This document shows positions 42,065 to 59,746 of a stretch of DNA of 64,000 nucleotides, piece by piece. The number at the start of each line of letters is the position of its first letter. Position 1 is the stretch's first letter. Made by a program: the position numbers and the translations under genes. The notes below the pieces were generated by a model. That model was not told the origin of the DNA and did no database searches. It saw only the letters and a program-made list of their open reading frames with translations. The DNA comes from Thermoproteus uzoniensis 768-20 (GTDB taxonomy: Archaea > Thermoproteota > Thermoprotei > Thermoproteales > Thermoproteaceae). The DNA lies in the NCBI RefSeq assembly GCF_000193375.1, contig NC_015315.1, positions 1,248,622 through 1,312,621 of the forward strand, given 5' to 3'.

Positions 42065-42799
42065 CTAGACTTGCCTCCACCGGGCCACCTTGGCTAGTAG
42101 AATCAGCGAAATTACGGCGTATATAACGAGCGAGATCCAAGACGCGACGATCACATAGGCGCCGTAGCGGACCATGCCCAGAGCCGATTGGCCTATTATG
42201 CCCGCCGCGCCCGTCGGCAACAGGACGCCGAGAAGCTCGTTGGGCAACACGGTGGCCGGCCAATAGACAGGCGCCATGGCCGACAACACCGCGCTCAGTA
42301 TACCCGGCACGGCCCAGGCGTACCGCATCTGTTTGATGAGGGTCGATATGGCGAAGCCCAAGCCCGCCGTGGACACCCACAGCAGTATCATGGAGATTGC
42401 CAGCGCGGCGGCTCCCATGATCGTGAACGCGCCGAGCACTGCAAGGTAGCCTGCGTAGAAGGCTATGGCGGGCGCCGCGAATATGAACGAGCTCAGCGCA
42501 AGGCCGAGCGCGTAGGCGATTGGGCTCACCGGTGCAGCCACCAACATTTGCTGAAATTTTATCTCCAGCCTGTAGAAGGTGGCGTCGCCTATTAAGGATA
42601 TGCCGTTAGACGCGACGGTCCATATCAAGCCTCCCAGCAAACCCCATCTAAGGCCGGCCTCGCCCGCGTAAATGGCCAGAACTATCAAGAAGCTGAGGGG
42701 CGTCACGGAGTTTGCCACAAGCCAGATCCAGCTACGCACTAGCGGGACCCAGCCGTTGAGCCAACCAATCACCAGTATGTCCCTCAAGAGCTTCTTCAT
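42065..42799 (-). CDS. ABC-2 type exporter permease
   Basis: The 244-residue protein has six predicted membrane segments (for example LIVLAIYAGEAGL, ISMILLWVSTAGLGFAIS). It carries the ABC-2 family pattern PVSPIAYALGLALSSF after an amphipathic LEIKFQQMLVAAP. It forms a dimeric channel driven by the ATPase encoded just upstream, with which it overlaps by four bases. Substrates of this group include drugs, polysaccharides and lipids. None is indicated here. Confidence 0.86.
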   Translation of the reverse strand: MKKLLRDILVIGWLNGWVPLVRSWIWLVANSVTPLSFLIVLAIYAGEAGLRWGLLGGLIWTVASNGISLIGDATFYRLEIKFQQMLVAAPVSPIAYALGLALSSFIFAAPAIAFYAGYLAVLGAFTIMGAAALAISMILLWVSTAGLGFAISTLIKQMRYAWAVPGILSAVLSAMAPVYWPATVLPNELLGVLLPTGAAGIIGQSALGMVRYGAYVIVASWISLVIYAVISLILLAKVARWRQV

Positions 42800-43677
42800 G
42801 ACTCCTCCGATATGGCTCCTATCCTATACAACACGTAGTCCTCGAGAGATCTCTGCCGTATACTCACTTTAGCCCCGGCTCTGATCAAGCTGTCGGCGAT
42901 CTCGCCGGGGTCGTCGACGAAGTATATCCCCCTATCGCCTATGGCCATATGAGGCTTCCTATCTATCGAGTTAGGGATCCCGTATGCCTCGACCACGTAT
43001 TTGCCCGGCACCTTCTCTATCAAGGCCCCGGGAGAGCCCACGTCCACCACCCTGCCCTTGTTTATCAAAACGACGTAGTCGCTCAACGACTGGGCCTCCT
43101 CCACGTAGTGAGTGGTCAGGAGAACCGTGACGCCGTTCCGCCTCATCGACGACACTGCGTTCCACACAATCCTGCGCGAGAATACGTCCAAGCCTGTGGT
43201 CGGCTCGTCGAGGAACACCACGTCCACGTCGGCGGCTAGGACGGCCGCGAGGAGCACGCGCCTCTTAGTGCCGCCCGACAAGGTCTGTATCTCCCTCCCC
43301 TTCACGTCGGAGAGCTGGAGCTCCGCCAACGCCTGCTCGGCCCTTCGCCGCGCCTCTCGTCGGGGGTATCCCCTCAAGAGGAGGTAGGCGTACACGAACT
43401 CGTAGGGGGTGAGGAACCCTATGGGCGAGCCCTCCTGCGGAACTGCGGCTATCCTACGCCTTATTTTCTCGGCTTCCTTGACCACGTCGTGGCCCGCGAC
43501 GTAGGCCCTACCCTTCGTGGGCAACAGCTCCGTTATCAGTATCCTCACCAGAGTAGTCTTGCCAGCGCCGTTAGGGCCTAAGATGGACACAACGCGCCCG
43601 GCGTCGGCCGAGAACGTGACGTCTTGTAGCGCCCACACGTCTCCGAACCTCTTGCCGAGCCCCTCAGCGGCGATCAT
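42796..43677 (-). CDS. ABC exporter ATP-binding protein (DrrA-like)
   Basis: Walker A is GPNGAGKTTLVR (about residues 35-46), the signature TLSGGTKRRVLLAA, and Walker B VVFLDEPTTGLD. Downstream, a C-terminal segment of about 70 residues after GSPGALIEKVPGKYVVEA matches the DrrA-type extension. It hydrolyses ATP for the ABC-2 permease encoded four bases overlapping. The pair is a two-gene exporter unit; QueF-L lies 20 bases upstream on the same strand and could be cotranscribed. Confidence 0.91.
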   Translation of the reverse strand: MIAAEGLGKRFGDVWALQDVTFSADAGRVVSILGPNGAGKTTLVRILITELLPTKGRAYVAGHDVVKEAEKIRRRIAAVPQEGSPIGFLTPYEFVYAYLLLRGYPRREARRRAEQALAELQLSDVKGREIQTLSGGTKRRVLLAAVLAADVDVVFLDEPTTGLDVFSRRIVWNAVSSMRRNGVTVLLTTHYVEEAQSLSDYVVLINKGRVVDVGSPGALIEKVPGKYVVEAYGIPNSIDRKPHMAIGDRGIYFVDDPGEIADSLIRAGAKVSIRQRSLEDYVLYRIGAISEES

Positions 43678-43697: not shown

Positions 43698-44030
43698 CTA
43701 AATATATATAGTGGGCTGGCCGCCGATCTCGGCCGTCACTTCGACCTCCACGCCTCTGTAGGTCGACCTCGCAACGACCTTGACGTATGCAGGCGATATG
43801 GCGTTTCTTATCCTCTCGGCTATATCCACCGCCAACTCCTCGTGGAATATCTCTCTGCCCCTATAGCTCTCCAAGATCTTCTCGAATTCCTCTATCAACA
43901 AGGCGTGTTCCCTCGGCACGTACTCGACCTCGACCACGTACTCGTCGACTGTCTTGCTCACGGGGCATACCGCCTCGGCCCGTCCCCTGAGCTTTACCCT
44001 ACTGGGTCTTTTGGAGAGGCGTATCGACAC
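43698..44030 (-). CDS. QueF-like archaeosine synthase (QueF-L)
   Basis: At 110 residues this equals the short crenarchaeal QueF-L. C22 in AEAVCPVSKTVDEY is the thioimide-forming cysteine of the QueF/GCH-I fold, and FHEELAVDIAERI supplies the base-binding glutamate. In Pyrobaculum QueF-L turns preQ0 at tRNA position 15 into archaeosine by adding ammonia, in place of ArcS. It overlaps a short TGT-like gene by 32 bases, so the two are made together. The family assignment is by motif and length. Confidence 0.85.
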   Translation of the reverse strand: MSIRLSKRPSRVKLRGRAEAVCPVSKTVDEYVVEVEYVPREHALLIEEFEKILESYRGREIFHEELAVDIAERIRNAISPAYVKVVARSTYRGVEVEVTAEIGGQPTIYI

Positions 44031-44952
44031 GGAGGAGGCTTAACGACTGTTGATAAAGCTTCTGGAAGATCTTCGACCGCGGAGGCTCGCGGCTCCTCAA
44101 CACTATCCAAGCGTTGACGAGGGCGCGGTACTCGAAACTGGCCTTGAGACGGGCTATATAGTCCTCGAACCCGTCGAGGACGGGGAAGCCGGAGCTTTTC
44201 AGGAACCGATAGAGCTCAACCAGCTCGTCGTCTCTGGCCTTCTTCTTGCCGAAGTTCACCTGGCGATCGGTCACGTGCCGCTCGCCCCCTCCAGGCAGAA
44301 GCACCTTGCCGTAAGCGGCCTTGAGCCTCCACGTAGCGCTGTCGGTCGAGTCTATACGAAGCGCCTCAAGAGCCGCCGAGATGGACGGGCTGCCGAGCCC
44401 AAGCGCGTGGAGTCTGCCGCCGAACTCGCGCCTGGCCATCGCAATCAGCCTTAAGGCAACTGAGCGCGAGCCGCGGGGCACTCCGCGGGAGATCAGTATA
44501 TACGGCACGGCGCCGCCCACAGCCAGCTCCTCGGCCCCGTCGTAGCGCTTGATCCATTTCAAGAAGAGCCCCTCGTCAGGATATACGTGGACCACCGGCA
44601 CTATCCTGGCCCCCGGCAATTCCGATTTGAGGACCAGCCAGTTCCTGTAGGAGGCCTCGGCCTTTCTATCGGCCACGTCCGGCGGATCCGAAGGGGTCGG
44701 CGGTATGTCGAGGGATAGGCAGACGTCGCATCCGATGCTCCGATAACGTTTAGCCAGTGTGTAGGGCGATATGGAGAGGCCCCTCTTGAGTATCTGGTAG
44801 CCTCCCGAGTCGACCCACAGCTCGCCCTCAAACCCCAAGAGCTCTCTGGCCCTCCCGTCGGCATCCAAGGCGTTTATCATCACCGCGTCTACGCCGAAAT
44901 AGAGCCAGGGCTTGGGTTCCGTCCTAACTGGCGTGCCCAGAATTACCCTCAC
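43999..44952 (-). CDS. Short tRNA-guanine transglycosylase-like protein without PUA domains
   Basis: The TIM-barrel residues include D48 in WVDSGGYQILKRG, the general acid/base motif of TGT enzymes. LSLDIPPTPSDPPDVADRKAEA is the archaeal-TGT-type barrel loop, and AVGGAVPYI is the glycine loop. In place of the canonical nucleophile segment it reads RIDSTDSATWRLKAAYGKV. It is 317 residues, far shorter than archaeal TgtA with its PUA part, and the zinc cysteine cluster is not visible. Overlap with QueF-L implies 7-deazaguanine handling. It may insert preQ0 into tRNA with a separate RNA-binding partner, or be a relative of the DNA-modifying DpdA/TgtA5 group. Confidence 0.7.
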   Translation of the reverse strand: MRVILGTPVRTEPKPWLYFGVDAVMINALDADGRARELLGFEGELWVDSGGYQILKRGLSISPYTLAKRYRSIGCDVCLSLDIPPTPSDPPDVADRKAEASYRNWLVLKSELPGARIVPVVHVYPDEGLFLKWIKRYDGAEELAVGGAVPYILISRGVPRGSRSVALRLIAMARREFGGRLHALGLGSPSISAALEALRIDSTDSATWRLKAAYGKVLLPGGGERHVTDRQVNFGKKKARDDELVELYRFLKSSGFPVLDGFEDYIARLKASFEYRALVNAWIVLRSREPPRSKIFQKLYQQSLSLLRVDTPLQKTQ

Positions 44953-45058
44953 GGCTAAATTAACTGTAGGGTTTATATAGTAGAGTAGGCTGAAAGTTTT
45001 AGTCAGCTGTTGAGCGCTTGGCCGGCGTCGATTTGTATTACCCTAGAGGGAGAGGCGT

Positions 45059-58443: not shown

Positions 58444-58533
58444 GCCGCCGTAGTCTAGCGGCTAGGATAGGGAAGCCCCTAACGGTGGGCTGTGGCCCCA
58501 TTGACCCGGGTTCAAATCCCGGCGGCGGCCCCA
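58444..58533 (+). tRNA. tRNA-His (anticodon GTG) with a 15-base non-canonical intron
   Basis: The acceptor GCCGCCG pairs with CGGCGGC (58523-58529). The T arm is CCGGG-TTCAAAT-CCCGG. C73 (58530) is the tRNA-His discriminator and CCA is encoded (58531-58533). The anticodon loop is CTGTGGC (58490-58496) with stem GTGGG/CCCAT. Only removal of 15 bases, 58468-58482 or 58469-58483, gives a normal 72-base body. The intron thus sits at the end of the D stem (position 24-26), not in the anticodon loop. The intron can form a small hairpin (TAGGG/CCCTA). The base before position 1 is A, so G-1 must be added after transcription. Confidence 0.85.
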
Positions 58534-59650: not shown

Positions 59651-59746
59651 TGGCGGGCCCGGCGGGATTTGAACCCGCGACCTACGGCTTAGAAGGCTCG
59701 GCGGATCTGGTCCTCCGCCGCTCTATCCATGCTGAGCTACGGGCCC
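59651..59746 (-). tRNA. tRNA-Arg (anticodon TCT) with an 18-base non-canonical intron
   Basis: Acceptor GGGCCCG (59746-59740) pairs with CGGGCCC; G73 (59654) and CCA are encoded. The D arm is GCTC-AGCATGGATA-GAGC and the T arm GCGGG-TTCAAAT-CCCGC. Anticodon loop CTTCTAA follows the stem. The 5' strand of the anticodon stem (GCGG plus C) is interrupted by 18 bases, 59714-59697, between positions 30 and 31. Without it the body is 75 bases. TTTTTAAGC (59768-59776) is about 26 bases upstream. Confidence 0.85.

What the first reader, a model, noticed from the sequence alone, without database searches (positions are those of the whole stretch)
43698..44952. QueF-L overlapping a short TGT-like protein without PUA domains
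QueF-L completes archaeosine synthesis in tRNA, so a coupled transglycosylase is logical. The partner, however, is only 317 residues, lacks the usual RNA-binding part and visible zinc cysteines, and has an altered nucleophile segment (DSTDSATWRLKAA). It may be a split TgtA needing a separate PUA protein, or a relative of the DpdA/TgtA5 enzymes that modify DNA.
Basis: partly seen in the sequence, partly recalled or inferred. Interest (0 to 1): 0.6.

Follow-up and report, generated by a model that had tools for sequence, protein, structure and literature searches.

The report
Archaeal DpdA-like transglycosylase with archaeosine partner
Next to the gene for an archaeosine-making enzyme, this heat-loving archaeon carries a second, virus-type base-swapping enzyme whose relatives in phages put modified guanines into DNA, suggesting that these archaea may mark DNA, not only tRNA, with archaeosine-type bases.

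Summary
The two genes are real: a 317-codon TGT-like gene (43999-44952, -) overlaps QueF-L (43698-44030, -) by 32 nt. It is not a split TgtA. The genome has a canonical TgtA elsewhere, and the stand-alone PUA protein near it is that enzyme's own detached C-terminus. The window protein belongs to a separate family of short, zinc-less, PUA-less TGT-like proteins, found in 42 of 45 genomes of the order, in other archaea, and in STSV/SIRV viruses. The catalytic aspartates (D48, D82, D204) are intact. The TGT glutamine is replaced by His122 in all 56 short proteins, including experimentally tested phage DpdAs, and in none of 12 TGTs. AU tests reject placement with TgtA. QueF-L overlap is a Thermoproteus trait. 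In Sulfolobaceae and STSV viruses the partner is instead a stand-alone ArcS-core (DUF5591) protein: all 18 Sulfolobaceae genomes with the TGT-like gene have it. Some relatives add HerA, NurA or PCNA-like genes. Most likely a DpdA-type enzyme inserts preQ0, probably into DNA, and an adjacent synthase makes archaeosine. The DNA substrate is inferred; RNA remains a serious rival.

The parts
43999..44952 (-). Short TGT-like (DpdA-like) transglycosylase gene, 317 aa, GTG start
   Evidence: order-wide orthologues; phrog_887 E 1.6e-17; AF2 pLDDT 94.1; tree
43698..44030 (-). QueF-L archaeosine synthase gene, 110 aa, GTG start
   Evidence: 5jyx E 4.7e-39; PF14489
43999..44030 (-). 32-nt overlap of the two coding regions, consistent with translational coupling (inferred)
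   Evidence: Coordinates; G040 overlaps by 20 nt, G042 by 56 nt, G041 has a 42-nt gap
44809..44811 (-). Codon of D48 (DSGG motif, catalytic Asp)
   Evidence: Asp in 68/68 sequences
44707..44709 (-). Codon of D82 (aligned with the guanine-recognising Asp of TGTs)
   Evidence: Asp in 68/68
44587..44589 (-). Codon of H122, which replaces the TGT Gln; diagnostic of the short/DpdA-like family
   Evidence: His in 56/56 short TGT-like proteins, Gln in 12/12 TgtA/Tgt
44341..44343 (-). Codon of D204 (nucleophile Asp in STDSATW)
   Evidence: Asp in 68/68
44972..44979 (-). TATATAAA sequence about 20-27 nt upstream of the GTG start; possible TATA box of a leaderless transcript (inferred)
   Evidence: Read directly; not tested
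42796..43677 (-). ABC transporter ATPase gene directly downstream; also near QueF-L in Pyrobaculum; involvement unknown
   Evidence: PF00005; conserved neighbour
42065..42799 (-). Putative ABC permease gene paired with it; involvement unknown
   Evidence: No Pfam hit; conserved neighbour

Best explanation
The gene encodes a chromosomal DpdA-like transglycosylase. It exchanges guanine for preQ0 in a nucleic acid other than the usual tRNA G15 site, most likely DNA, by the TGT double-displacement mechanism (D48 acid/base, D204 covalent nucleophile, D82 reading the guanine edge, H122 in place of the TGT Gln). QueF-L, made from the overlapping gene (or Gat-QueC before insertion), would turn the cyano group into the archaeosine formamidine, so that the polymer carries archaeosine or preQ0. 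Shown: intact catalytic residues, DpdA-type active-site substitutions, separation from TgtA, conservation across the order, and recurrent pairing of relatives with archaeosine-synthase genes. Inferred: the transglycosylase activity, the DNA substrate, and the order of the steps.
For: (1) Catalytic Asp residues in 68/68; H122, P119 and S202 shared with phage DpdAs (CAjan-identical protein, 9g, Rosebush type) and absent from TgtA/Tgt. [quoted passage not shown] (2) AU tests reject grouping with TgtA (p 0.0009 and 0.0002); the TgtA+Tgt branch has 100/99 support. (3) The phage/virus profile phrog_887 finds the family in Thermoproteota and in none of 14 control genomes that all have ordinary TGTs. 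(4) The genome has its own TgtA for tRNA G15. (5) Partners are archaeosine-synthase genes of two unrelated kinds: QueF-L in Thermoproteus, and a stand-alone DUF5591 protein with PCx3KPYx2Sx2H in Sulfolobaceae (18/18 with the TGT-like gene, 1/13 without; Fisher 9e-8) and in STSV1/2/4. (6) DNA-processing genes adjoin relatives: HerA-like ATPases, NurA, a PCNA-like clamp; phage DpdA genes adjoin DNA polymerase and clamp genes.
Against: Overall similarity of the window protein to phage DpdA and to TgtA is about equal (38.0 against 36.5 bits; hhalign 123.8 against 125.2), so the grouping rests on the tree split and a few residues; the tree has one bacterial Tgt and long branches. Within Thermoproteales the neighbours are mixed: Trm112p-like in Pyrobaculum (an RNA/protein methylation cofactor), HerA in other genera, QueF-L only in Thermoproteaceae. 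Near-universal presence in the order looks like housekeeping, unlike patchy DNA-modification islands. The TGT-linked HerA of Thermoproteales is a different paralogue from the Sulfolobus one. No modified base has been measured.
Confidence: 0.52

Rival explanations
1. It is a second RNA transglycosylase: it inserts preQ0 at another tRNA position or in rRNA, and QueF-L completes archaeosine there.
For: Order-wide conservation suits a housekeeping RNA modification. QueF-L acts on preQ0-tRNA (PMC5485725). In Pyrobaculum the gene sits beside a Trm112p-like gene and near QueF-L. [quoted passage not shown] The fold is closest in the PDB to ArcTGT.
Against: It shares active-site changes with phage DpdAs, not with TgtA. 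Relatives are carried by DNA viruses and lie beside PCNA-like, HerA and NurA genes. A canonical TgtA already serves tRNA G15.
Confidence: 0.3
2. It is an accessory or regulatory subunit that pairs with TgtA or QueF-L, like the non-catalytic subunit QTRT2 of eukaryotic TGT.
For: Overlapping gene with QueF-L; co-occurs with TgtA in almost all genomes of the order.
Against: All three catalytic Asp residues are invariant in 56 sequences. Viruses carry it without TgtA. It has its own partners in Sulfolobaceae.
Confidence: 0.1
3. It is a domesticated viral gene that protects against or interferes with viruses, with no base-exchange activity today.
For: Homologues in STSV and SIRV viruses.
Against: Catalytic residues are strongly conserved. 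The cellular clade is deep and the virus copies branch inside it, next to Sulfolobaceae copies, so transfer more likely went from cell to virus.
Confidence: 0.05
4. It is a split TgtA catalytic domain that needs a stand-alone PUA protein.
For: Short length, no PUA; a stand-alone PUA protein that matches ArcTGT residues 461-582 exists in the genome.
Against: That PUA gene lies about 2.9 kb from a complete canonical TgtA catalytic gene. Tree and AU tests exclude the window protein from TgtA. The zinc site is absent.
Confidence: 0.03

Closest known systems
Phage DpdA (9g, CAjan/Seurat, Rosebush type) and archaeal-virus DpdA homologues (STSV, SIRV; Hutinet 2019, PMC6884629)
   Same: About 280-390 aa, no PUA, no zinc Cys motif, D48/D82/D204, H122, P119 and S202 conserved; archaeal-virus proteins are the nearest non-cellular relatives.
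   Different: Cellular, conserved across a whole order, gene overlaps QueF-L here; no preQ0 operon beside it; overall similarity to phage DpdA is low (38 bits).
ArcTGT / TgtA (TIGR00432)
   Same: TGT fold, catalytic Asp residues, His182.
   Different: No zinc site, no C-terminal domains, Gln replaced by His122, 35 bits against a cut-off of 350; a true TgtA is present in the same genome.
Bacterial Dpd system and DpdA (NF041059)
   Same: TGT-derived enzyme that puts 7-deazaguanines in DNA.
   Different: Window protein has no NF041059 hit even at E 10; no other dpd genes seen beside it. Bacterial DpdA sequences were not in my tree.
BREX-related capture (BRC) systems (PMC12839542)
   Same: TGT together with a HerA/FtsK ATPase and a large P-loop ATPase, as in operons of Sulfolobus and deeper relatives of the window protein.
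   Different: The window locus has none of these next door. The Sulfolobus operon has an ArcS core and NurA; no PglZ or GNAT among the genes I examined.
QueF-Like archaeosine synthase (P. calidifontis, 5jyx)
   Same: Near full-length match, E 4.7e-39, same cysteine region.
   Different: Here its gene overlaps a DpdA-like gene, and the genome also has Gat-QueC.

Membership tests
TgtA (archaeosine tRNA-guanine transglycosylase) | Score above the curated TIGR00432 cut-off (350 bits) | tested here: not met
   35.3 bits
TgtA (archaeosine tRNA-guanine transglycosylase) | CxCxxC zinc site | tested here: not met
   0/12 Thermoproteales short proteins, 10/12 TgtA/Tgt
TgtA (archaeosine tRNA-guanine transglycosylase) | Branches with TgtA | tested here: not met
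   AU p 0.0009
TgtA (archaeosine tRNA-guanine transglycosylase) | C-terminal domains with PUA (fused or as a separate protein) | tested here: not met
   No PUA in the 317-aa protein; the separate PUA protein lies by the canonical TgtA
DpdA (phage and viral type) | TGT fold with catalytic Asp residues | tested here: met
DpdA (phage and viral type) | His in place of the TGT Gln, with P..H and S.D active-site pattern | tested here: met
   56/56 short proteins including 10 from phages or a plasmid; 0/12 TGTs
DpdA (phage and viral type) | Matches the phage/viral family profile | tested here: met
   phrog_887 E 1.6e-17
DpdA (phage and viral type) | Nested within bacteriophage DpdA in a tree | tested here: not met
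   Phage DpdAs are their own clade (100/99); the window is in a separate archaeal clade (98/95)
DpdA (phage and viral type) | Puts a 7-deazaguanine into DNA | not testable with these tools
   Needs LC-MS/MS or an in vitro assay
Bacterial DpdA (NF041059) | Score above the curated cut-off (200 bits) | tested here: not met
   No hit at E 10
QueF-L (P0002) | Near full-length match to a proven QueF-L with the active-site Cys | tested here: met
   5jyx, residues 3-110, E 4.7e-39
QueF-L (P0002) | Converts preQ0 in a polymer to archaeosine | not testable with these tools
   Shown for the P. calidifontis enzyme (PMC5485725), not for this one
BRC / Dpd-like defence locus | TGT gene beside HerA and effector/ATPase genes | tested here: not met
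   Not at the window; met only in relatives such as L171 and L173

The most novel reading that the evidence does not exclude
A whole order of archaea (Thermoproteales) carries archaeosine-type bases in its own chromosomal DNA as a housekeeping mark, put there by a chromosomal DpdA-like enzyme. The same short enzyme family has been paired independently with two unrelated archaeosine synthases (QueF-L, and a PUA-less ArcS core) and, in Sulfolobaceae and others, with HerA/NurA machinery that could read the mark.
Probability: 0.35. Interest if true: 0.85.

Novelty: new variant of a known kind. Interest (0 to 1): 0.62.

Why it matters
Archaeosine is known as a tRNA base and as a DNA base of a few phages. 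A chromosomal, order-wide DpdA-like enzyme paired with archaeosine synthases would mean that cellular archaea mark their own DNA (or a second RNA target) with it, which can be tested directly by mass spectrometry on cultivable species. It would also give a function to the genes annotated 'queuine tRNA-ribosyltransferase' in Sulfolobus viruses, and explain why PUA-less ArcS cores exist.

Tried and rejected
Split TgtA: rejected (canonical TgtA plus its own detached PUA protein are present). Decayed paralogue: rejected (invariant catalytic residues). Strict QueF-L dependence: rejected (g3, g5, g6 and G001 keep the TGT-like gene without a QueF-L match). PADLOC scan of the two window proteins: no hit. 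A viral-contig scan with the single protein found nothing; the alignment scan found 26 loci. One HerA family linked to the TGT everywhere: rejected, there are at least two HerA groups; further canonical HerA genes fetched for that tree were missed by my motif filter, so canonical HerA is represented by one sequence. Net charge did not separate DNA from RNA enzymes. ArcS signature motif and reported modification of STSV1 DNA: not found in the open library; the motif is from my own knowledge of Phillips 2010.

Full report
Observation. The window lies at 1248622-1312621 of a complete 1.936 Mb archaeal genome; named relatives are Thermoproteus, Pyrobaculum, Vulcanisaeta and Caldivirga, so the host is a Thermoproteus-like member of the Thermoproteales (the species guess, T. 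uzoniensis, is from my memory of its genome size). A 317-codon TGT-like ORF (43999-44952, -) overlaps QueF-L (43698-44030, -) by 32 nt. QueF-L matches the solved P. calidifontis QueF-Like over residues 3-110 at E 4.7e-39. The TGT-like protein is barely seen by TGT models (Pfam 0.4; TIGR00432 35 bits of 350) but hits the phage/virus profile phrog_887 at 1.6e-17.

Not a split TgtA. The genome has one canonical TgtA (508 aa, TIGR00432 521 bits). It has no PUA in its own frame, but a 148-aa protein about 2.9 kb away on the same strand matches residues 461-582 of P. horikoshii ArcTGT. DUF5591 occurs in this genome only inside TgtA. The genome also has a Gat-QueC (496 aa, QueC 2.8e-54, GATase_7 4.3e-15), so it has two archaeosine-forming enzymes.

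Distribution. Full or partial copies of the short gene, distinct from TgtA, were found in 42 of 45 genomes of the order; the three without one (G011, G022, G039) are 54-82% complete. Outside the order it is scattered: 70 of 398 genomes of the phylum have a phrog_887 match (39 of them from this order), and none of 14 control genomes does. A collection scan adds Pyrodictiaceae, Acidilobaceae, Ignisphaera, Sulfolobus and Njordarchaeota. Viral relatives are STSV1/2/4 (E 3e-37) and rudiviruses; Hutinet 2019 counts Ligamenvirales and Bicaudaviridae among viruses with DpdA/7-deazaguanine genes (PMC6884629).

Active site. In a 68-sequence alignment D48, D82 and D204 are present in all. H122 is His in 56/56 short proteins (archaeal, viral, phage) and Gln in 12/12 TgtA/Tgt; P119 is 56/56 against 0/12; S202 is 55/56 against 0/12. 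CxCxxC is absent from all Thermoproteales and phage members but present in two deep-branching relatives, L173 and L174, which look like intermediates. The model (pLDDT 94.1) matches ArcTGT best in the PDB (E 4.3e-14) and the SBRV1 protein best among viruses (E 2.7e-17); nt-1 DpdA2 is also matched.

Phylogeny. IQ-TREE separates TgtA plus E. coli Tgt from all short proteins (100/99). Phage DpdAs form a clade (100/99), and most archaeal short proteins with their viruses another (98/95). AU tests reject Thermoproteales short proteins with TgtA (p 0.0009) and archaeal short plus TgtA against phage DpdA plus Tgt (p 0.0002). Caveats: one bacterial Tgt, long branches, no bacterial DpdA, and overall profile scores that do not separate DpdA from TgtA. 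I therefore call it DpdA-like, a sister family, not a proven DpdA.

Partners. In Thermoproteus QueF-L overlaps or adjoins the gene (G000, G040, G041, G042), and in G038 it adjoins in the opposite orientation. In Pyrobaculum genomes with both genes on one contig the distance is 4-33 kb, with the same ABC ATPase/permease pair beside QueF-L. These genomes share ancestry and are not independent. Other genera keep the short TGT without this QueF-L. In Sulfolobaceae 18 of 31 genomes have the short TGT; all 18 have a stand-alone DUF5591 protein carrying PCx3KPYx2Sx2H (which I recall as the ArcS signature), and 1 of the other 13 does (Fisher 9e-8, not corrected for relatedness). In 16 of 18 the gap is under 200 bp. 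STSV1/2/4 carry the same pair, overlapping. So the same short enzyme family sits with two unrelated archaeosine-synthase genes.

DNA link. In L126, L164 and L171 the Sulfolobus operon continues with a HerA-like ATPase, a roughly 1015-aa protein (weak BrxC/D match, 4.9e-4, below cut-off), a 235-aa protein and, in L171, a NurA gene (5e-14). L174 has a PCNA-like gene (PCNA_N 5e-7) next to its TGT-like gene; L173 has DUF5591, HerA and a large protein related to those in L130 and L125. HerA-like genes adjoin the TGT in Vulcanisaeta, g3 and T11 (upstream, same strand) and in Caldivirga (convergent), but this HerA is a different paralogue from the Sulfolobus one, and in Thermoproteus and Pyrobaculum it is elsewhere. 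Phage DpdA genes adjoin clamp and polymerase genes. A published BRC system also joins TGT and HerA (PMC12839542). Against: the Trm112p-like neighbour in Pyrobaculum and housekeeping-like conservation.

Mechanism. Proposed: D204 attacks C1' of a target deoxyguanosine (or guanosine), guanine leaves, preQ0 enters with help from D48 and D82, and QueF-L (or Gat-QueC before insertion) makes the formamidine. Every chemical step is inferred from the TGT and QueF-L families. I put DNA at about 0.55-0.6 and RNA at about 0.3.

Noticed in passing
G000 C1 about 1350810-1351256 (-), L221:1486-1932; TgtA at C1 1354138-1355664: The genome's canonical TgtA appears split: the catalytic part and a 148-aa protein that matches the C-terminal PUA region of ArcTGT are separate genes about 2.9 kb apart.
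   Followed up: yes
L126, L164, L171 (Sulfolobaceae): Possible modification/restriction-like operon: short TGT, ArcS-core DUF5591, HerA-like ATPase, ~1015-aa protein, 235-aa protein, NurA-like nuclease. Apart from generic HerA/DndH-type ATPase models, PADLOC matched nothing strongly.
   Followed up: partly
L173 and L174 (deep Thermoproteota): TGT-like proteins that keep a CxCxxC motif; L174 sits beside a PCNA-like gene and L173 beside an unassigned gene that looked clamp-like by eye (no Pfam hit). Possible intermediates between TGT and DpdA-like enzymes.
   Followed up: partly
G000 C1 684856-686346 (L210:857-2347): Gat-QueC is present together with QueF-L, so two archaeosine-forming enzymes coexist in this genome; Pyrobaculum has only shorter QueC frames.
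   Followed up: partly
L034:10297-10725: A Trm112p-like gene (PF03966) sits beside the short TGT in several Pyrobaculum genomes.
   Followed up: partly
G001 C6:52597-52875 and G392 C13:5651-6061: Second, weaker phrog_887 matches in two genomes that may be extra DpdA-like copies.
   Followed up: no
window 58444-58533 (+) and 59651-59746 (-): ARAGORN reports two tRNA-like calls with four-base anticodons and undetermined identity; possibly intron-containing tRNAs read poorly with the bacterial setting, or false calls.
   Followed up: no
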